From contig JAKQEZ010000467.1 in assembly GCA_029558435.1 (NCBI GenBank), positions 1 to 52,854 of the forward strand: 52,854 nt of DNA. The letters are read 5' to 3'. Shown piece after piece: positions 41,108 through 52,341 of the stretch. Position 1 is the first letter of the stretch, and the number at the start of each line of letters is the position of its first letter. Under the pieces are notes generated by a model. That model searched no databases, had not been told where the DNA came from, and saw only the letters and a program-made list of their open reading frames with translations. The DNA comes from Bacteroidota bacterium. GTDB lineage: Bacteria; Bacteroidota; Bacteroidia; Flavobacteriales; Crocinitomicaceae. The translations under genes and the position numbers were made by a program.

Positions 41108-42052
41108 ATGAAAAGAGAAGAATTAAAGGCGGAAATCTTACGGTTGAAGAAGGAAAAAAACACGGTAATTTTGGCCCATTATTACCAAGAAGATGACATT
41201 CAAGAGATAGCCGACTTTGTTGGAGACAGTTATGGATTATCAGTAGAAGCATCTAAAACAAACGCTGAGATGATTTTGTTTTGTGGGGTGCATTTTATGG
41301 CAGAAACCGCAAAAATTTTAAATCCAACAAAAAAAGTATTGTTACCTGATCTTAATGCAGGTTGCTCACTTGCAGATGGTTGTAAATACGATGAATTTAA
41401 AGCTTTTAAAGACGAACATCCCGATCATGAAGTGGTGATGTATATTAACTGTTCTGCTGAAGTAAAATCTATTTCAGATTACATCTGTACATCTTCCAAT
41501 GCCGTAAAAATTGTCAATTCTATTCCAGCCGATAAAAAAGTGATTTTTGCTCCCGACCGCAATTTGGGTCGCTATGTAAAAAAAGCTACTGGTCGTGATT
41601 TGGTGCTATGGAACGGAAAATGCATTGTGCATGAAGCTTTTTCTTTTGATAAAATCATGAAACTTATTCTTGCACACCCTAATGCCGATTTAATTGCGCA
41701 TCCAGAATCAACGGCAGATGTATTAGAACTAGCACAATTTGTTGGTTCAACTGCCGCAATGATTAATTATGTGAAAGAATCACCAAAAGATGAGTTCATC
41801 ATTGCTACTGAAGCAGGAATTTTACATAAAATGCACGAAGTAGTGCCTCACAAAACATTAATTCCCGCACCAATTGATGAAGATAATACATGTGCGTGTA
41901 GTGAATGCGCATTTATGAAGATGAACACGCTTCAAAAAGTGTACGATTGTTTGGTAAACGAATATCCAGTTATTGATTTAACAACAGAAGTAATGGATGC
42001 TGCACGTTTGCCTATTGAACGAATGATACAAATTACAGAAAGTGCAAAATAA
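41108..42052 (+). CDS. nadA: Quinolinate synthase A
   Basis: The 314-residue [4Fe-4S] enzyme condenses iminoaspartate with dihydroxyacetone phosphate to quinolinate, the precursor of NAD. The N-terminal repeat carries VILAHYYQEDDIQEIADFVGDS; cysteines likely to bind the cluster lie in the LNAGCSLADGC region, in LWNGKCIVHE, and in CACSECAFMKMNTL. Length and repeat layout match the family. It overlaps nadB by 11 bp and heads a long co-directional gene run. Confidence 0.97.
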   Translation: MKREELKAEILRLKKEKNTVILAHYYQEDDIQEIADFVGDSYGLSVEASKTNAEMILFCGVHFMAETAKILNPTKKVLLPDLNAGCSLADGCKYDEFKAFKDEHPDHEVVMYINCSAEVKSISDYICTSSNAVKIVNSIPADKKVIFAPDRNLGRYVKKATGRDLVLWNGKCIVHEAFSFDKIMKLILAHPNADLIAHPESTADVLELAQFVGSTAAMINYVKESPKDEFIIATEAGILHKMHEVVPHKTLIPAPIDEDNTCACSECAFMKMNTLQKVYDCLVNEYPVIDLTTEVMDAARLPIERMIQITESAK

Positions 42053-43571
42053 GAGCGATATAGTAGTTGTAGGCTCTGGAATTGCCGGACTATCATTTGC
42101 AATAAAAATTGCAGAAAAAATGCCTAATTGTACAATCAACGTGTTGACGAAATCACAAGTGGCATTGTCAAATTCTAATTTTGCTCAAGGTGGTATTGCC
42201 GTTGTAACCAATTTGGTAAAAGATTCCTACGAAGCCCATATTCAAGATACTCTTGCTAGTGGTGGCGGTTTATCTAAACCTTCCATCGTAAAATTGGTAA
42301 TTGAAACAGCTTATGAGCGTTTGAAAGAATTGGTGGCTTATGGCGTTGAATTTAACAAAACCCCTGAAGGTGATTTTGACTTAGCGCTGGAAGGCGGACA
42401 CAGCACCCATCGTGTGGTGCATTCCTATGATCACACGGGTGAAAATGTTGTAAAAGGCCTAATCAAAAAAGCATCAACTTTTAAAAACATTCAGTTTTTT
42501 GAAAACCGATTTTGCATTGAACTCATTAAAAATGAACACGGAGCTGTAAAAGGATTAACGGCATTGAACCTCAACACCAACGAATTGGAAACTTATGTCA
42601 GTAATTTGGTGGTGCTGGCATCTGGTGGTTCGGGGCAAGTTTACAAATACACAACCAATCCCGATGTGGCAACAGGCGATGGCGTGGCAATGGGAATCAA
42701 GTGTGGTGCAATGGTATCTAATTTGAATTTTATCCAGTTCCACCCTACTGCTTTGTACGAAGAAAATAAACCTCGTTTGGATTTGTTAACCGAGGCAATC
42801 AGAGGGTTTGGTGCCCACATCGTTAATAAAAACGGTAAACGCTTTGTGTTTGATTACGATAACCGAGGCGAATTGGCAACGCGCGATATTGTTTCGAAAG
42901 CAATTTTTAGCGAACTCAGAAAAAGTGATGAAAAATGTGTGTATTTGGATTGCAAACATTTGGATAAAGATAAATTCAACGAAAAATTCCCACAAATTGC
43001 AGCTAATTTACAATCGAAAAACTTAGATATTGCAATTGATTTAATTCCGGTTGTACCAGCAACACACTATCAATGTGGCGGATTAAAAGTTGACGTTGAT
43101 GGTCAAACAACAGTTACAGGTTTATTTGCCATTGGCGAATGTGCAGAAACAGGCTTGCACGGTGCCAATCGTTTAGCTTCCAACTCGCTTTTAGAAGGAT
43201 TGGTTTTTGCACATCAAGCAGCCAATTTCATTGCAGAAAATTACGAGCAATTTGTGAGCGATTCATCGATAGAATCTCCAACTTATACCCTCGATAAAAG
43301 CAATGATGCTGTTTTTGAAACTGCTATTGACCAGTTGAGAAATACCATGTCAAAATATGCAACCATCGCTTCAAGTTTAGACGACATAGAGCTATGCATG
43401 CAACAGTTGGATGCTATCAATAATTCTATTGAATCCATCAAAAACAATCAAATCATTTCAGAGCAACGATTGATTTTCAACAACTTAATGGTGAATGCAC
43501 GTGCAATTGCAAAATTTAAACGCTTACACATTTTGCATGCTCAAAAAACTGAAACATTAGAGAAACACTAA
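42042..43571 (+). CDS. nadB: L-aspartate oxidase
   Basis: The 509-residue flavoenzyme oxidises L-aspartate to iminoaspartate, which NadA uses directly. It has the FAD motif VVVGSGIAGLSFAI, the flavin-loop SNSNFAQGGIA, the succinate-dehydrogenase-like HSTHRVVHSYDHTGE and GLFAIGECAETGLHGANRLASNSLLEG. The start is a GTG at 42042, inside nadA by 11 bp, because no ATG lies between it and the FAD motif. Tight coupling to nadA favours handing on of the unstable intermediate. The presence of the aspartate route means kmo is not needed for NAD synthesis unless the rest of the kynurenine route is present elsewhere. Confidence 0.97.
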   Translation: MQNKSDIVVVGSGIAGLSFAIKIAEKMPNCTINVLTKSQVALSNSNFAQGGIAVVTNLVKDSYEAHIQDTLASGGGLSKPSIVKLVIETAYERLKELVAYGVEFNKTPEGDFDLALEGGHSTHRVVHSYDHTGENVVKGLIKKASTFKNIQFFENRFCIELIKNEHGAVKGLTALNLNTNELETYVSNLVVLASGGSGQVYKYTTNPDVATGDGVAMGIKCGAMVSNLNFIQFHPTALYEENKPRLDLLTEAIRGFGAHIVNKNGKRFVFDYDNRGELATRDIVSKAIFSELRKSDEKCVYLDCKHLDKDKFNEKFPQIAANLQSKNLDIAIDLIPVVPATHYQCGGLKVDVDGQTTVTGLFAIGECAETGLHGANRLASNSLLEGLVFAHQAANFIAENYEQFVSDSSIESPTYTLDKSNDAVFETAIDQLRNTMSKYATIASSLDDIELCMQQLDAINNSIESIKNNQIISEQRLIFNNLMVNARAIAKFKRLHILHAQKTETLEKH

Positions 43572-43587
43572 CTATAAAACAAAAACT

Positions 43588-46390
<2,803 letters not shown>

Positions 46391-46402
46391 AAAAATTTTT
46401 AT

Positions 46403-48454
46403 ATGATTACGTCTCAACTTATTTCGCCAAAAAGCATCGCAATTATTGGTGCATCTGAAAACACAAGCAAACCTGGAGGTAAAGTGTTGCAAAATATATT
46501 GGAAGGAAAATTTAAAGGTCCAGTTTATGCTGTCAACAAAAAACCAATTGACATAAAAGGTGTAATCTATGTTTCAGAAATTGAGCAAATTGAACAAGTT
46601 GATTTAGCAATTATTTCCATTCCGGCAAGCCAGTGTTTGGAAGCAATTCAAAAGCTACTCAACAAAGGTGCAAAGGCATTCATTATTTATTCTGCTGGAT
46701 TTTCTGAAGCAGGCGAAGAGGGAATTGCCATTGAGAAAGAAATTGTGGCGTTAATCAATAAAAACAATGCAACATTGATTGGTCCAAACTGTATTGGCGT
46801 TATCAATGATGTGTATAAAGGTGTGTTTACAACGCCCGTTCCAAATTACGACAAATTGGGCTGCGAATTGATTTCAAGTTCGGGTGCAACTGCCGTTTTT
46901 ATTATGGAATCGGCTTTGGGAACTGGACTTAAATTCTCCAATATCTACTCCATCGGAAATGCTTCGCAAACTGGTGTTGAAGAAATTTTGGAGTACATGG
47001 ATCAAACGTTCGACCCCGAAAATAGTCCGAAAGTAAAGCTGTTGTACTTAGAACACATCAAAAATCCATTTAAGTTTATTAAACATGCAACTTCATTAAG
47101 AAAAAAAGGTTGTCGTATTGCGGCAATCAAATCAGGATACTCCGAGGCGGGAGGAAGAGCGGCTTCCTCCCACACTGGAGCACTTGCAACATCAGATACT
47201 GTTATTCGTGCTTTGTTTAAAAAATGTGGCATCGTTTATTGCAGTAGTCGAGATGAATTAATTGCCGTTGCAGGAGTTTTCCAAAACAAAGAAGTCACAG
47301 GAAAAAATATTGCCATCATCACACACGCCGGCGGTTCGGCAGTAATGCTTACAGATGCTCTTACATCCAATGGAATGAATGTTCCTCCATTCGATGCAAA
47401 AGACACCAAAGAATTATTGGCTAAACTCAACCCTGGCTCATCGGTGAGCAACCCTATTGATTTCTTGGCAACTGGAACAGCAGAGCAATTGGGAGAAATC
47501 ATTGATTTTTGCGACAATTACAAGGCCGTTGATGGAATGGTAGTTGTATTTGGTAGTCCCGGATTGTTCAACGTAAAAGACGTATACGAAGTGTTGGACA
47601 ACAAGATGAGAAAATGCAAAAAGCCAATTTTCCCTGTTCTCCCATCCCTCATCAATGCAGAAAAAGAAATTAAACATTTCTTATCCAAAGGGCGTGTTAA
47701 CTTTCCAGATGAAGTAAACTTAGGAAAGGCGCTGGCACACGTTTACAAATCAACAGAAATTTCGTTTGACAAAGTTAAACTTCCAGAAATGGATTTACCT
47801 GCCATTCGCTCATTGGTGAATGCCGCTTCTAATGGATTTTTAAACCAAGATGCTTGTCGCGAATTGCTCGAAGCTGCTGGTATTGAATTGGTGAAACAAC
47901 AGGAATACACCGACAGCCAACAGCTGGCAACATTGAAAGACAACATGCGCTTTCCAATTGTTATGAAAGTTACCGGACCTGTACATAAAACAGAAGTTGG
48001 TGGTGTTATTCTCAACATTCACGATGAAAACCAAGCAATGGACGCATTCAACCAATTAATGAAAATTCCTGATGCAAAAGGTGTGTTGGTGCAAGAAATG
48101 TTGAAAGGCGAAGAATTGTATTGTGGCGCTGTAAAACAAGGAGATTTTGGTCACGTGGTGCTTTGTGGTTTGGGAGGAATATTTCTTGAATTACTCAACG
48201 ATACAGCTTCGGCATTGGCACCTATGAGTCAGCTTGAAGTATCCACCATGGTTGAATCACTCAAAGGATATGCCCTCATTGAAGGTTACCGCAACAAAAA
48301 AGGACTGGATAAAAACAAATACATCGACATCATTATGCGCATTGGGGCATTGGTACACTTGGCACCAGAAATTGCCGAGTTGGATTTAAACCCTATCATG
48401 GCCAATGAAACACAAATGACCGTTGTGGATGTACGAATTAAAATAGAAAAATAA
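46403..48454 (+). CDS. ADP-forming acetate/acyl-CoA ligase, fused alpha-beta
   Basis: The 683-residue protein contains the alpha part (CoA-binding Rossmann domain with SIAIIGASENTSKPGGKV, then the succinyl-CoA-synthetase-like flavodoxin domain with the phosphohistidine in ASSHTGALATSD, His 257) and the beta part (ATP-grasp, with RFPIVMKVTGPVHKTEVGGV). Fused forms make acetate or other acids plus ATP from acyl-CoA, ADP and phosphate, as an energy-saving final step of amino-acid breakdown. The position after tnaA and tpl fits this role. Acyl specificity is unknown. Confidence 0.92.
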   Translation: MITSQLISPKSIAIIGASENTSKPGGKVLQNILEGKFKGPVYAVNKKPIDIKGVIYVSEIEQIEQVDLAIISIPASQCLEAIQKLLNKGAKAFIIYSAGFSEAGEEGIAIEKEIVALINKNNATLIGPNCIGVINDVYKGVFTTPVPNYDKLGCELISSSGATAVFIMESALGTGLKFSNIYSIGNASQTGVEEILEYMDQTFDPENSPKVKLLYLEHIKNPFKFIKHATSLRKKGCRIAAIKSGYSEAGGRAASSHTGALATSDTVIRALFKKCGIVYCSSRDELIAVAGVFQNKEVTGKNIAIITHAGGSAVMLTDALTSNGMNVPPFDAKDTKELLAKLNPGSSVSNPIDFLATGTAEQLGEIIDFCDNYKAVDGMVVVFGSPGLFNVKDVYEVLDNKMRKCKKPIFPVLPSLINAEKEIKHFLSKGRVNFPDEVNLGKALAHVYKSTEISFDKVKLPEMDLPAIRSLVNAASNGFLNQDACRELLEAAGIELVKQQEYTDSQQLATLKDNMRFPIVMKVTGPVHKTEVGGVILNIHDENQAMDAFNQLMKIPDAKGVLVQEMLKGEELYCGAVKQGDFGHVVLCGLGGIFLELLNDTASALAPMSQLEVSTMVESLKGYALIEGYRNKKGLDKNKYIDIIMRIGALVHLAPEIAELDLNPIMANETQMTVVDVRIKIEK

Positions 48455-48456
48455 CA

Positions 48457-48879
48457 ATGAAACTTAGACCAATACACGTATTTGCTACTTTGTGTATTTT
48501 GTTTTTGGCTTACTCAATTGATATTTATTTAAAACCGATGCAGGTGAAAGAAGTCACAACAATCAATACACACGACATGACCGAAGGCAGATTGGTATGG
48601 CAAAAATACAATTGCCAGGCATGTCACCAATTATACCATTTGGGTGGTTATCTGGGTCCAGATTTAACAAACGTTTATTCCAAATACAACGGAAATGGCG
48701 AAGTTATTAAAGGATTTTTAAAAGCTGGTATTCGTCAAATGCCTAGTTACAACATGACAGCAGAAGAAGAACGTTTGCTTATTGAATTTCTGAAAGAGGT
48801 AGATGCTACTGGTAGTTCAGATATGAAAAATTTTGAGGTTTTACCAAACGGAATGATAGAACAATATGGAAAGAGATAA
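48457..48879 (+). CDS. norC: Membrane-anchored cytochrome c, NorC-like subunit
   Basis: The 140-residue protein has one N-terminal membrane helix (about 6-24) and a periplasmic cytochrome c domain with the heme site C-Q-A-C-H at 53-57 and Met 95 in RQMPSYNM as likely sixth ligand. The length and the phrase GRLVWQKYNCQACHQLYHLGG agree with NorC, which passes electrons to the NorB subunit of cytochrome-c-dependent nitric oxide reductase. The stop overlaps the norB start by 14 bp. No norD/norQ maturation genes are adjacent. Confidence 0.85.
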   Translation: MKLRPIHVFATLCILFLAYSIDIYLKPMQVKEVTTINTHDMTEGRLVWQKYNCQACHQLYHLGGYLGPDLTNVYSKYNGNGEVIKGFLKAGIRQMPSYNMTAEEERLLIEFLKEVDATGSSDMKNFEVLPNGMIEQYGKR

Positions 48880-50206
48880 AACAGCTACAGGAAGAAGTTT
48901 TTTAAGTCTGGCAATGGTTTCTCTTTTTGTTGGACTAATTGGTGGTGTTTTGGCTTCCATCACCTATATCAAACCTGATTTTATGGATAATTTTCAAGGA
49001 TTATCTAAATTACGTCCCATCCACGTTTCTTTTGTGATGTTTTGGATCATCATCGGGGCAAGTGGCGGCGTGTATATGGGCATGTCTATCCTCTCCAAAA
49101 GTAAACCAATCAAGTGGATTGCTAACCTTCAATTGAGTTTATGGATAGTTGCCTTAATTGGCATTGGATATTCTTATTTAGTTGGCGATTTTGGAGGACG
49201 TGAATATTGGGAGTTCAATCCCATTTGGGCACTTCCAATTTTGCTTGCTTGGCTTTTGCAATTGATCAATTTTATTCACCTGGCAAGAACGGTTAAAAAA
49301 TGGCCCGTTTATGTTTGGATGTGGATGTCGGGAACGGTGTTTTTTCTACTCATTTTTATAGAAAATTACTTGTGGATATTTCCCTACTTCCGTGCGCATT
49401 TCATAACCGATATGACCATTCAATGGAAAGTAAACGGCTCATTGGTAGGTTCTTTTAACCAATTAATTTATGCTACCGCATTTTTTATGATGGACCGCAT
49501 TAATGGTACCAATGAACATAAAATTGGAAGTAGCAAATTGGCTTTTGCCATGTATTTTCTTGGATTAGGCAATATGATGTTTAATTGGAGTCACCACATT
49601 TATACCTTGCCTACCGAAAGTTACATTCGCTATGTGGGATATGCCGTGAGCATGACCGAATGGATAATTTTCCTTCGCATTGTGGCTTTGTGGAAAAACT
49701 CGCTTACAGAATTTAAGAAAAACTACCATTTTTTCCCTTATCGTTTTATCATGGCCTCCGATATTTGGGTGTTTATCAACGTTGGATTTGCCTGCTTTAT
49801 GTCTATTCCCGCGTTTAACATTTATACACATGGAACGCATTTTACAGTTGCGCATTCCATGGGAACAACCATAGGCATCAACACCATGATACTTTTTGCA
49901 GCTGTTTTTATGTTTTTTACTCCAAAAACAGCGCACGAAGGTAAACCAAGCATCGTTCTTCGCAGCACTTTTTGGGTTATTCAAATTGCGCTTTTGTGCC
50001 TGTTCTTATCGCTTAAAACTGCTGGATTATTGAAAGGATTTTGGCAATTAGACGAAAATCAAGTTTCTTTTTACGATATGATGCAAAGTCTGCAACCCCT
50101 GTTTATCGTGTTTGTAACATCGGGAACAATTTTAATGATTGCATTCTTTTATTTACTTGGAACCATTTTTAAATACAGTCGAATTAATAAAAATTTAAAC
50201 GCATGA
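48866..50206 (+). CDS. norB: NorB-like heme-copper oxidase superfamily catalytic subunit with altered FeB site
   Basis: The 446-residue protein has about 12 membrane helices and best fits the NorB group. Low-spin heme ligand His 53 is in LRPIHVSF; His 243/His 244 (WSHH) match FeB ligands His 258/259 of Pseudomonas NorB; and His 330 (FTVAHSMG) matches the heme b3 ligand His 347. My alignment by eye, anchored on KITG/RING and the surrounding glycine, puts Asn 190 at His 207, Val 194 at Glu 211, Asn 198 at Glu 215, and Met 332 at His 349. Glu 280 is retained as Glu 265. Thus two FeB ligands and one low-spin heme His are changed. NO reduction remains the likely activity, but a variant NOR, or a dismutase-like enzyme, must be considered. 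Confidence 0.82.
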   Translation: MERDKTATGRSFLSLAMVSLFVGLIGGVLASITYIKPDFMDNFQGLSKLRPIHVSFVMFWIIIGASGGVYMGMSILSKSKPIKWIANLQLSLWIVALIGIGYSYLVGDFGGREYWEFNPIWALPILLAWLLQLINFIHLARTVKKWPVYVWMWMSGTVFFLLIFIENYLWIFPYFRAHFITDMTIQWKVNGSLVGSFNQLIYATAFFMMDRINGTNEHKIGSSKLAFAMYFLGLGNMMFNWSHHIYTLPTESYIRYVGYAVSMTEWIIFLRIVALWKNSLTEFKKNYHFFPYRFIMASDIWVFINVGFACFMSIPAFNIYTHGTHFTVAHSMGTTIGINTMILFAAVFMFFTPKTAHEGKPSIVLRSTFWVIQIALLCLFLSLKTAGLLKGFWQLDENQVSFYDMMQSLQPLFIVFVTSGTILMIAFFYLLGTIFKYSRINKNLNA

Positions 50207-51375
50207 AATCATCCATCAATCTAAACAACACCGAAAAAGCTTTTGCTTATAAATCGGATGCTGAATTGAAAAACACCATCTTTATTTTTGGGTTGTTGCA
50301 AAAACCATTTTTGGTTAAAATGCTCATGAAAATTGCCGATTGGATCATCACATTCAAATTGCCGTTGAAATTTATTTTGAGAAAAACGGTATTTCAAGTT
50401 TTTTGTGCGGGCGAAAACAGATCGGAAGCTGCAAAAACAATCCAACACATTAAAAAATACAATGTAAATACGGTTTTAGATTACGTTGCAGAAGGCGATA
50501 ATTCGGAAGCAAGTTTTGAGAATAATTTGCAAACAATTTTAGACAACATTCAATTTGTGAGCAAGAATGCAGCAGACGCTACGGTTGGTGTTAAACTATC
50601 TGGTTTAGAAGATGTTGCGTTTTTAAAACAATTTAAAACCATCGACGAAGGAAATAGTGATATCGCAATATTGCGATTAGCTAAATTTACCGAAAGAGTG
50701 GAGAAAATTTGCCAATTAGGAAGCGATTTACACGTAAAAATCTACATTGATGCCGAAGAATATTCTACGCAATTCATTTTCGATAATGTGGTGGAATTAA
50801 TGATGGAGAAATTCAATAAAAAAGAGGTAATTGTTTACAACACGTTGCAGATGTATCTAACCGACAGAGTGGATTATTTGAACAAAGCTATTTCTGATGC
50901 ACGTGCAAAAGGATATTTATTGGGTATGAAATTGGTGCGTGGTGCTTATGTTGAAAAAGAACGCGAATATGCCAAAAGAGATGGTGTACCGAGCCCTGTT
51001 TTTGACACCAAAGAAGGAACCGACCGTTCGTATGATACAGCATTGGAAATTTGTTTAAGAGAAAATAGTCTTATAAACACGTGTTTAGCCACGCATAATC
51101 AAGCAAGTGTGGAACTTGCCGTGCAATTAATTGAAGAATTTAAGATAGAAAATCATCACCAAAAGATATTTTTTTCGCAACTTTACGGAATGAGTGACAA
51201 TCTAACTTTTAATTTAGCTGCGTCCAATTACAATTCTTCCAAATACGTGCCTTATGGTGAGGTAGAAAAAGCGATTCCATATTTGATGCGAAGAGCCGAA
51301 GAAAATTCATCCATTGAGGGTCAGGTTGGTAGAGAGTATGAATTATTATTACTTGAAAAAAATAGGAGAAAGTAA
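50203..51375 (+). CDS. Proline dehydrogenase
   Basis: The 390-residue monofunctional enzyme is a PutA-type FAD barrel that oxidises L-proline to pyrroline-5-carboxylate and gives electrons to quinone. The characteristic C-terminal motif YLMRRAEENSSIEGQ with the substrate-binding Arg pair is present, as are the barrel phrases VRGAYVEKEREYA and CLATHNQASVELA. There is no aldehyde dehydrogenase domain. It overlaps norB by 4 bp and precedes the Rrf2 gene by 3 bp. A dispersed palindrome lies at 50659-50678. Confidence 0.93.
   Translation: MKSSINLNNTEKAFAYKSDAELKNTIFIFGLLQKPFLVKMLMKIADWIITFKLPLKFILRKTVFQVFCAGENRSEAAKTIQHIKKYNVNTVLDYVAEGDNSEASFENNLQTILDNIQFVSKNAADATVGVKLSGLEDVAFLKQFKTIDEGNSDIAILRLAKFTERVEKICQLGSDLHVKIYIDAEEYSTQFIFDNVVELMMEKFNKKEVIVYNTLQMYLTDRVDYLNKAISDARAKGYLLGMKLVRGAYVEKEREYAKRDGVPSPVFDTKEGTDRSYDTALEICLRENSLINTCLATHNQASVELAVQLIEEFKIENHHQKIFFSQLYGMSDNLTFNLAASNYNSSKYVPYGEVEKAIPYLMRRAEENSSIEGQVGREYELLLLEKNRRK
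50660..50678. repeat. Dispersed palindrome, copy 4
   Basis: ATATCGCAATATTGCGATT inside the proline dehydrogenase gene, with 18 palindromic bases; read as Asp-Ile-Ala-Ile-Leu-Arg-Leu. Confidence 0.75.
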
Positions 51376-51378
51376 AAA

Positions 51379-51825
51379 ATGTTTACAAAAGCGTGTGAGT
51401 ATGGTATTAGAGCTTGTTTAATTGTGGCTCAATATTCATTAAATGAAACAAGAATAAGTTTAAAGGAAATTGCCAAATTGGTAGATTCGCCCGAAGCGTT
51501 TACAGCCAAGATTTTACAAAAATTGGTAAAAAGTAAAATTTTATACTCCATCCAAGGACCACAAGGAGGTTTTGGAATGACACCCGAAAACATAAAAAAC
51601 ACAACATTAGAGCGCATTGTTTATGCCATTGATGGCGATTCATCCTACACGGCATGTGTTTTAGGTTTAAAAGATTGTTCAGACACCAACCCTTGTCCGG
51701 CGCACAAAAAATACAAGTTTATCAAGGCAGAATTTTTGGAAATGATTCACAAAACAACGGTTGACGAAATGGTAAACGATATAGAAAACGGATTGGCATT
51801 CTTAAAAAACAATACAGGCTGTTAA
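51379..51825 (+). CDS. Rrf2-family iron-sulfur regulator, NsrR/IscR-like
   Basis: The 148-residue regulator has an N-terminal winged helix (about 1-80, YGIRACLIVAQYS, ISLKEIAKLVDSPEAFTAKILQKLVK) and three cysteines C93-x6-C100-x5-C106 in the loop after the dimerisation helix, the Rrf2 Fe-S binding pattern. Position and spacing resemble NsrR (Cys 93, 99, 105 in Streptomyces), which senses NO through a [4Fe-4S] cluster; IscR has a similar pattern. Since it ends the gene run containing norCB, NO sensing is a reasonable inference. The next gene has its own -7 element. Confidence 0.88.
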   Translation: MFTKACEYGIRACLIVAQYSLNETRISLKEIAKLVDSPEAFTAKILQKLVKSKILYSIQGPQGGFGMTPENIKNTTLERIVYAIDGDSSYTACVLGLKDCSDTNPCPAHKKYKFIKAEFLEMIHKTTVDEMVNDIENGLAFLKNNTGC

Positions 51826-51873
51826 TTGTTCTTTACATTTCCAAAAAAATAGCTTTCTATTGCTTTTTAAGCG

Positions 51874-51881
51874 TATCTTTG
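51874..51881 (+). promoter_or_regulatory. Promoter -7 element of queD
   Basis: TATCTTTG is an exact TAnnTTTG match 13 bp before the queD ATG. No TTG is at the usual -33 distance. Confidence 0.5.
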
Positions 51882-51894
51882 CAAAAAAATTAAA

Positions 51895-52341
51895 ATGTCT
51901 GCAATTCGTATCACAAAGAGTTTTACATTCGACATGGCGCACGCCCTTGAAGGATACAACGGTCTTTGTAAAAACATCCACGGTCATACATACGTGTTAC
52001 ACGTTACAGTTTTAGGTAAACCAATAGATGAAAATTCCAATCCAGAAAATGGTTTAGTGATGGATTTTGGTGATTTAAAAAAAATCGTCAAAAAAGGAGT
52101 TTTAGATACATTTGATCATGCATTGGTTATCAAAGAAGGTTCGTCCATTTTAAAATCATTGAATTTAACAGAAAACGAGCGTTTAATTACCACTCCTTTT
52201 CAACCAAGTTGCGAAAACTTATTAATTCATTACGTAGGTATCATACAATCCCTACTTCCACAACAAGTAAAATTGGTAGCTGTTCGCTTAAACGAAACTC
52301 CAACTTCTTATGCAGAATGGTTGCTTGAAGACCAACTGTAG
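51895..52341 (+). CDS. queD: 6-pyruvoyltetrahydropterin synthase/QueD-like
   Basis: The 148-residue T-fold enzyme has the zinc ligands His 16 (FDMAHAL), His 29 and His 31 (NIHGHTY), the catalytic Cys 25 (NGLCKN) and the His/Glu pair near the C-terminus (RLNETPTSYAEW). It most likely converts dihydroneopterin triphosphate to 6-carboxytetrahydropterin in queuosine synthesis; sepiapterin-type or PTPS activity is the alternative. No other queuosine gene is beside it. Confidence 0.92.
   Translation: MSAIRITKSFTFDMAHALEGYNGLCKNIHGHTYVLHVTVLGKPIDENSNPENGLVMDFGDLKKIVKKGVLDTFDHALVIKEGSSILKSLNLTENERLITTPFQPSCENLLIHYVGIIQSLLPQQVKLVAVRLNETPTSYAEWLLEDQL

What the first reader, a model, noticed from the sequence alone, without database searches (positions are those of the whole stretch)
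48866..50206. NorB-like subunit lacks one His and the Glu ligand of FeB and has Met in place of a low-spin heme His
Seen: His 53, His 243/244 and His 330 align with NorB His 60, 258/259 and 347. By eye, Asn 190 aligns with FeB ligand His 207, Val 194 with FeB ligand Glu 211, Asn 198 with Glu 215, and Met 332 with the low-spin heme ligand His 349. Known: these residues are the metal and heme ligands in the Pseudomonas cNOR structure. As far as I recall, NO dismutase-type proteins also show a His-to-Asn change in the FeB site. Inference: a divergent Bacteroidota NOR clade with altered chemistry (NO reduction with a two-His FeB, or NO dismutation), with His/Met coordinated low-spin heme.
Basis: partly seen in the sequence, partly recalled or inferred. 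Interest (0 to 1): 0.78.

Follow-up and report, generated by a model that had tools for sequence, protein, structure and literature searches.

The report
NOR-like complex with rebuilt heme site
The gene belongs to a distinct family of membrane respiratory enzymes in Bacteroidota that resembles nitric oxide reductase but lacks some of its metal-binding residues, and it tends to occur with the gene for nitrous oxide reductase, so it may be the missing nitric-oxide-consuming step in some of these bacteria.

Summary
The ORF and residues are as described. The protein belongs to a conserved, monophyletic family (321 rows; 335 stretches in GTDB genomes) of C-family heme-copper oxidases. It is sister to cNOR plus NOD-like proteins (92/89, moderate) and outside cbb3. 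Met332 at the low-spin-heme His349 position is invariant (320 of 320 aligned). Helix VI has no His or Glu at the FeB positions. The NO-dismutase parallel fails: NOD-like proteins from six carrier genomes have Asn at His259 and Gln at Glu280, both intact here. A NorC-like cytochrome c gene lies directly upstream in 79 of 79. Within one order NosZ is in 24 of 26 carriers versus 4 of 38 others. There, no cNOR or NOD-like protein was found in 64 genomes, five of which carry the family, NirK and NosZ; B-family NORs were not searched. Most likely a cytochrome-c-fed NO reductase with a rebuilt non-heme site. No activity is shown.

The parts
48866..50206 (+). NorB-like catalytic subunit (446 aa, about 12 long helices in the model, heme-copper oxidase fold)
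48457..48879 (+). NorC-like membrane cytochrome c (140 aa), overlapping the NorB-like ORF by 14 bases
   Evidence: best solved relative NorC 3o0r_C, 37 bits; C53, C56, H57 and M95 in 79 of 79 rows; directly upstream in 79 of 79 (78 loci and the window) where the NorB-like ORF was called
49022..49024 (+). His53 codon: low-spin heme ligand equivalent to NorB His60
   Evidence: 321 of 321
49427..49438 (+). Lys188-Val-Asn190-Gly191 codons, helix VI: Gly191 opposite FeB ligand His207 in profile alignments; Lys188 one turn before
   Evidence: K188 and G191 321 of 321, N190 221 of 321; register
49457..49459 (+). Asn198 codon, opposite Glu215 in the cNOR alignments
   Evidence: 321 of 321
49592..49597 (+). 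His243-His244 codons: the two retained non-heme metal ligands (His258/259)
   Evidence: 321 of 321
49853..49855 (+). His330 codon: proximal ligand of heme b3 (His347)
   Evidence: 320 of 320 aligned
49859..49861 (+). Met332 codon: Met at the second low-spin heme ligand (His349)
   Evidence: 320 of 320 aligned; opposite His in the cNOR, cbb3 and NOD-like profiles
41108..48454 (+). Same-strand upstream genes, closely spaced: nadA (41108-42052), nadB (42042-43571), tryptophanase-type lyase (43588-44988), tyrosine phenol-lyase (45005-46390), ADP-forming acyl-CoA synthetase-type protein (46403-48454, only below-cutoff CoA-ligase matches)
   Evidence: recurrence of such genes in related loci
50203..52341 (+). 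Downstream genes: proline dehydrogenase (50203-51375), Rrf2 regulator with three C-terminal cysteines (51379-51825), QueD-like (51895-52341)
   Evidence: Rrf2-type gene cluster in 41 of 79 neighbourhoods

Best explanation
It is the catalytic subunit of a cytochrome-c-fed nitric oxide reductase (2 NO to N2O) of a class not separated before, in the C-family of heme-copper oxidases. Electrons enter through the NorC-like heme c, pass to a low-spin heme b held by His53 and Met332 (expected to have a raised potential), then to heme b3 (His330). Heme b3 faces a non-heme metal held by His243 and His244; the third His and the Glu of cNOR are gone, and the invariant Lys188/Asn198 on that helix take over as ligand or proton donor. 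The N2O made is passed to NosZ. Shown: the residues and their conservation, the partner gene, the clade, and the co-distribution and linkage with NosZ. Inferred: which cofactors bind, the role of Lys188, and the reaction.
Against: The helix VI His, Glu211 and Glu215, conserved in known cNOR/qNOR, are all gone. Most carriers examined lack NirK over its cut-off (25 of 36; 21 of 26 in the order), so the NO supply is not obvious. 11 of 36 carriers also have an ordinary cNOR and 6 a NOD-like protein. The gene tracks NosZ more closely than nirK. The fold match is no better to NOR than to cbb3. B-family NORs were not searched for. No biochemistry. Many genomes are MAGs, so absences are soft.
Confidence: 0.5

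Rival explanations
1. An accessory or electron-transfer module of N2O respiration: the heme c/heme b complex moves electrons between the cytochrome pool and NosZ, or protects NosZ from trace NO or O2, without true NO turnover.
For: Co-distribution is with NosZ rather than with nirK or cNOR. In F. orientale locus L070 the pair lies 756 bases before nosZ, in one strand run with nosZ and genes that look by eye like nosD, nosF and nosY. The FeB site is altered, while low-spin heme and heme c positions are conserved.
Against: Heme b3 His330 and His243/244 are invariant across the 321 rows, which an electron wire does not need. In the window the pair sits among amino-acid catabolism genes, with no NosZ found in 52.8 kb. 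2 of 26 carriers in the order have no NosZ match at E<=1e-60, and 3 of 36 in the hand-picked set have none over cut-off.
Confidence: 0.22
2. A heme-based NO sensor or scavenger, or NO-binding electron valve, without N2O formation.
For: Rrf2-type genes in 41 and FeS-repair RIC-type genes in 19 of 79 neighbourhoods (each cluster named from one representative). A two-His site may bind no metal.
Against: Membrane complex with a dedicated cytochrome c donor in 79 of 79 and retained Glu/Ca/propionate region, suited to turnover.
Confidence: 0.13
3. NO dismutase (2 NO to N2 + O2).
For: A missing non-heme His, and Asn at the neighbouring position in 221 of 321 members.
Against: NOD-like proteins carry Asn at His259 and Gln at Glu280 and keep His207, Glu211 and Glu215 (6 of 6), the opposite pattern. 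Asn190 is not conserved. A cytochrome c donor gene is always next to it (79 of 79), while putative NODs are described as unable to accept external electrons (PMC3413370). NOD-like proteins co-occur as separate genes in 6 of 36 carriers.
Confidence: 0.04
4. A cbb3-like O2 reductase or a low-activity oxidase.
Against: No helix VI CuB His, no Tyr at the cross-link position (position recalled); A-type and cbb3-type oxidases, told apart by score and length, are each present in 12 of 12 carrier genomes.
Confidence: 0.05

Closest known systems
cNOR (NorCB), e.g. Pseudomonas aeruginosa 3O0R and Roseobacter denitrificans 4XYD
   Same: NorC-type single-heme cytochrome plus a NorB fold; heme b3 His347, His258/259, low-spin His60, Glu280, Arg134/Glu135/Glu138 and Asn335/His339 equivalents
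   Different: 17-19% identity to five Bacteroidota cNORs; His207, Glu211 and Glu215 replaced; His349 replaced by Met; its own clade outside cNOR+NOD-like
cbb3 oxidase CcoN (3MK7, 6XKW)
   Different: No CuB His in helix VI, no Tyr at the recalled cross-link position, Met for the low-spin His; a NorC-like gene directly upstream (CcoO/CcoP neighbours were not searched for)
NO dismutase (NOD) / qNOR
   Same: C-family NOR side; one non-heme His lost in NOD
   Different: NOD-like proteins lose His259 and Glu280, this loses His207, Glu211 and Glu215; NOD-like proteins are ~800 aa, and putative NODs are described as lacking a donor site
B-family NORs (eNOR, sNOR, gNOR, CuA-NOR/bNOR)
   Same: Precedent for NORs without the active-site Glu: Q, N, D and N in PMC8756737 Table A4 (passage seen)
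   Different: Cupredoxin-type second subunit and B-family kinship (PMC11388526 passage); not aligned here

Membership tests
Heme-copper oxidase superfamily | PF00115 over its gathering cut-off | tested here: met
   95 bits versus 34.8
Heme-copper oxidase superfamily | Histidine sextet (two low-spin, one b3, three non-heme metal), as stated in PMC3413370 | tested here: not met
   Four of six present; the helix VI His is Gly (or N/L/M/Y and others in the other register) and the second low-spin His is Met
cNOR | NorC-type cytochrome c partner | tested here: met
cNOR | Three His plus Glu211 at FeB | tested here: not met
cNOR | Groups with cNOR in a tree | tested here: not met
   Outside a 99/99 cNOR+NOD-like clade; family 100/99 (55 rows; cNORs only from Bacteroidota)
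cNOR | Reduces NO to N2O | not testable with these tools
   needs the protein
NO dismutase | His->Asn and Glu->Gln at the catalytic site | tested here: not met
   His259 and Glu280 equivalents intact in 321 of 321
NO dismutase | Fused qNOR-type architecture without electron input | tested here: not met
   446 aa plus an adjacent cytochrome c gene
cbb3 O2 reductase | Three CuB His and cross-link Tyr (Tyr position recalled) | tested here: not met
B-family NORs (eNOR, sNOR, gNOR, nNOR, bNOR) | Place in the B-family tree | not tested
   no named sequences of these classes were used

The most novel reading that the evidence does not exclude
A third class of C-family NO reductase, with a His/Met low-spin heme b and a two-His non-heme site completed by an invariant Lys. 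It supplies the missing NO-reduction step in Bacteroidota that carry nirK and nosZ but no recognised nor, and it was missed because surveys discard homologues without the canonical ligands.
Probability: 0.38. Interest if true: 0.86.

Novelty: new variant of a known kind. Interest (0 to 1): 0.74.

Why it matters
A 2025 survey reports that 9% of Bacteroidota denitrifier genomes have nir and nosZ but no nor, and that homologues lacking conserved ligand-binding domains were excluded by curation (PMC12569097, passages seen). In one order this family is the only NOR-like protein found (cNOR and NOD-like proteins were searched, B-family NORs not) in five such genomes. If it reduces NO, N2O budgets and 'partial denitrifier' labels for a large phylum change. 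It would also show that the third non-heme His and the bis-His low-spin heme of this superfamily are dispensable, which bears directly on the NOR mechanism debate. Carriers include Flavobacterium isolates such as F. sasangense, F. aquaticum and F. orientale, so it can be tested.

Tried and rejected
Rejected: Asn190 as a conserved FeB ligand (221 of 321); NO dismutation (pattern); pseudogene or sequencing error (dN/dS 0.04-0.055 in four pairs, and 321 aligned homologues); a DNRA partner role as a general rule (NrfA in 2 of 36); NirS as NO source (only short partial matches, 8 of 36 over a low cut-off). A replacement third His: H322 is the cNOR H339 equivalent, and H325 is 315 of 321 (Q 3, F 2, gap 1), so it is not strictly required; not excluded.

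Led nowhere: a scan of viral contigs for close relatives found none. The first structure model, from 20 rows, was weak at the active site (pLDDT 79). The second, from 86 rows, gave 89, but five of those rows are cNORs, and no coordinates were available to measure distances. No whole genome is held for the window, so whether its own genome has NosZ, NirK or cNOR is unknown. Eight literature searches listed no paper that appeared to describe this family; a ninth failed. I saw passages only of PMC3413370, PMC12569097, PMC11388526, PMC4816578, PMC10256718, PMC5723336, PMC10359470, PMC13386854, PMC8756737 and PMC8780969; a term search in PMC6636425 returned no passage. The NOR diversity papers by Murali and by Hemp and Gennis were not read (recalled, or cited in the papers above), so the family may be in print there.

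Limits of counts: the 36 carrier genomes were chosen by hand from the genomes of 80 loci (favouring long contigs and isolates), the 12 likewise. In some searches two of 81 sequences (L049, L060) gave no matching ORF and were dropped; the window is counted twice in the 80 rows. Gene clusters were named from one representative each. One search's 321 rows include near-identical sequences; the tree used 26 of the family. NosZ counts in the order are at E<=1e-60 (28 genomes; 27 are over the curated cut-off, G383 has fragments only). The two protein searches listed only their best 120 matches each.

Full report
**What is there.** Window 48866-50206 (+) encodes a 446-aa protein with PF00115 at 95 bits. 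A 140-aa cytochrome c ORF (48457-48879) overlaps its start. The nearest solved sequences are NorB 4xyd_A (33.7 bits) and cbb3 CcoN 6xkw (24.4 bits) for the large subunit, and NorC 3o0r_C (37.2 bits) for the small one. The genes around it run on the same strand with little space: nadA, nadB, a tryptophanase-type lyase, tyrosine phenol-lyase, an ADP-forming acyl-CoA synthetase-type protein, the pair, proline dehydrogenase, an Rrf2 regulator and a QueD-like gene.

**The residues are a family trait.** A protein search gave 2421 homologues, of which the best 120 were listed. A second search from a distant member gave 2404, best 120 listed. A scan of GTDB species genomes found 335 encoding stretches, of which 80 were kept, nearly all titled Bacteroidota, including named Flavobacterium isolates. 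In 321 family rows H53, W187, K188, G191, G195, N198, Y202, W241, H243, H244, E265 and H322 are 321 of 321. H330 and M332 are 320, with one cut-off row. Four pairs give dN/dS 0.04-0.055 (in the window-L001 pair dS is near saturation).

**Register of helix VI.** Position 190 varies (N 221, L 47, M 23, Y 17, S 7, A 3, others 3), so it cannot be a general ligand. Either way the third non-heme His and both Glu are gone. Invariant polar residues on that helix include Lys188 and Asn198; that Lys188 reaches the metal is my inference. M332 faces His349 in all four profile alignments. In PMC10256718 (passages) His347 and His349 of P. aeruginosa cNOR hold heme b3 and heme b, and Glu211 binds FeB.

**Not a dismutase.** PMC3413370 (passages) states that putative NODs replace one metal His by Asn and a nearby Glu by Gln. 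Six ~800-aa proteins from family-carrying genomes show this signature at the His259 and Glu280 positions, while keeping His207, Glu211 and Glu215. The family shows the reverse. I call these proteins NOD-like from that signature only; PMC5723336 (passages) argues that some such proteins may still be NO reductases.

**Genomic association.** The cytochrome gene is directly upstream in 79 of 79 (78 loci and the window) where the NorB-like ORF was called. Other recurrent neighbours in 79: tyrosine phenol-lyase/tryptophanase-type lyase in 47, Rrf2 in 41, NadA and NadB in 37 each, a +1 gene of the window's proline dehydrogenase size in 24, FeS-repair RIC in 19, NrdD and NrdG in 18 each, Crp-type in 13 (named from one representative each). 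NosZ over cut-off: 33 of 36 hand-picked carrier genomes against 99 of 296 phylum genomes. In those 296 the family is in five at 190 bits or more (two as partial matches), all NosZ+; one of the five is the search centre. In the order of G006 (64 genomes) the family is in 26 and NosZ in 28; both in 24, family only 2, NosZ only 4, neither 34 (Fisher 2e-11, which ignores shared ancestry and genome completeness). NosZ lies within 20 kb on the same contig in 17 of 33 NosZ+ carriers of the first set and in 12 of 24 of the second. In one carrier of the first set (G005) it is on the same contig but 178 kb away; the others are on different contigs or were not placed. In F. orientale (L070) the strand run is nrdD, nrdG, rrf2, nadA, nadB, the pair, a small lipoprotein-like ORF, nosZ, a further ORF, then nosD/F/Y-like genes (several names by eye).

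**Other NO enzymes.** Of the 36 carriers, 11 have cNOR, six a NOD-like protein, 19 neither. NirK is over cut-off in 11 of 36; three of these (G014, G017, G018) have neither cNOR nor a NOD-like protein. In the 64-genome order all eight matches to cNOR at E<=1e-15 are the family itself, so no cNOR or NOD-like protein was found. NirK is in six, five of them carriers with NosZ; the sixth (G368) has NosZ without a family match. B-family NORs were not searched. Such nir+nosZ-without-nor genomes are what PMC12569097 calls initiator-terminators, 9% of Bacteroidota denitrifier genomes, for which it offers NO reduction by other organisms or Nor-independent pathways. Absences in MAGs are weak evidence.

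**Reading.** The retained b3, Ca and proton-side residues and a dedicated cytochrome c argue for a working reductase. The gene company argues for an N-oxide substrate. NO is the most likely, because the clade is on the NOR side and fills a NOR gap in NirK+ genomes. The closer tie to NosZ than to NirK keeps an accessory role in N2O respiration as the main rival.

**Novelty.** Names given by sources are 'cbb3-type cytochrome c oxidase subunit I' or 'nitric oxide reductase subunit B'. No paper listed in the searches named in Tried and rejected appeared to describe it, but key NOR diversity papers are not in the library.

Noticed in passing
L141-L146 (genomes of L059, L062, L063, L033, L080, L042): Six carrier genomes hold an ~800-aa NOD-like protein (His259->Asn, Glu280->Gln) together with the Met332 family and NosZ; Bacteroidota NOD clades are known (PMC13386854, passages seen).
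   Followed up: partly
L065:6347-7582 and 15 other loci (cluster 13): A ~405-aa protein with an HGHSHF motif recurs near the pair in 16 of 79 loci; the one representative scanned has no Pfam or NCBIfam match. Proteins of similar length with weak PF00115 matches lie near the pair in G002 and G003. Possibly another divergent heme-copper oxidase-like protein.
   Followed up: no
L027:1808-3697 and 30 other loci (cluster 6): A ~600-aa protein family recurs near the pair in 31 of 79 loci; the representative scanned has no Pfam or NCBIfam match.
   Followed up: no
window 41108-51375: The pair sits among amino-acid catabolism genes (tryptophanase-type lyase, tyrosine phenol-lyase, acyl-CoA synthetase-type, proline dehydrogenase) and NadA/NadB, an unusual setting for a respiratory complex.
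   Followed up: partly
window 51379-51825: The Rrf2 regulator has cysteines spaced C-x6-C-x5-C near its end, as in Fe-S binding members (recalled); its NsrR model match is far below cut-off (26.8 versus 182 bits).
   Followed up: no
L116, L117, L120, L122: A further cbb3-like group (476-529 aa) in Bacteroidota genomes forms a clade beside cbb3.
   Followed up: no
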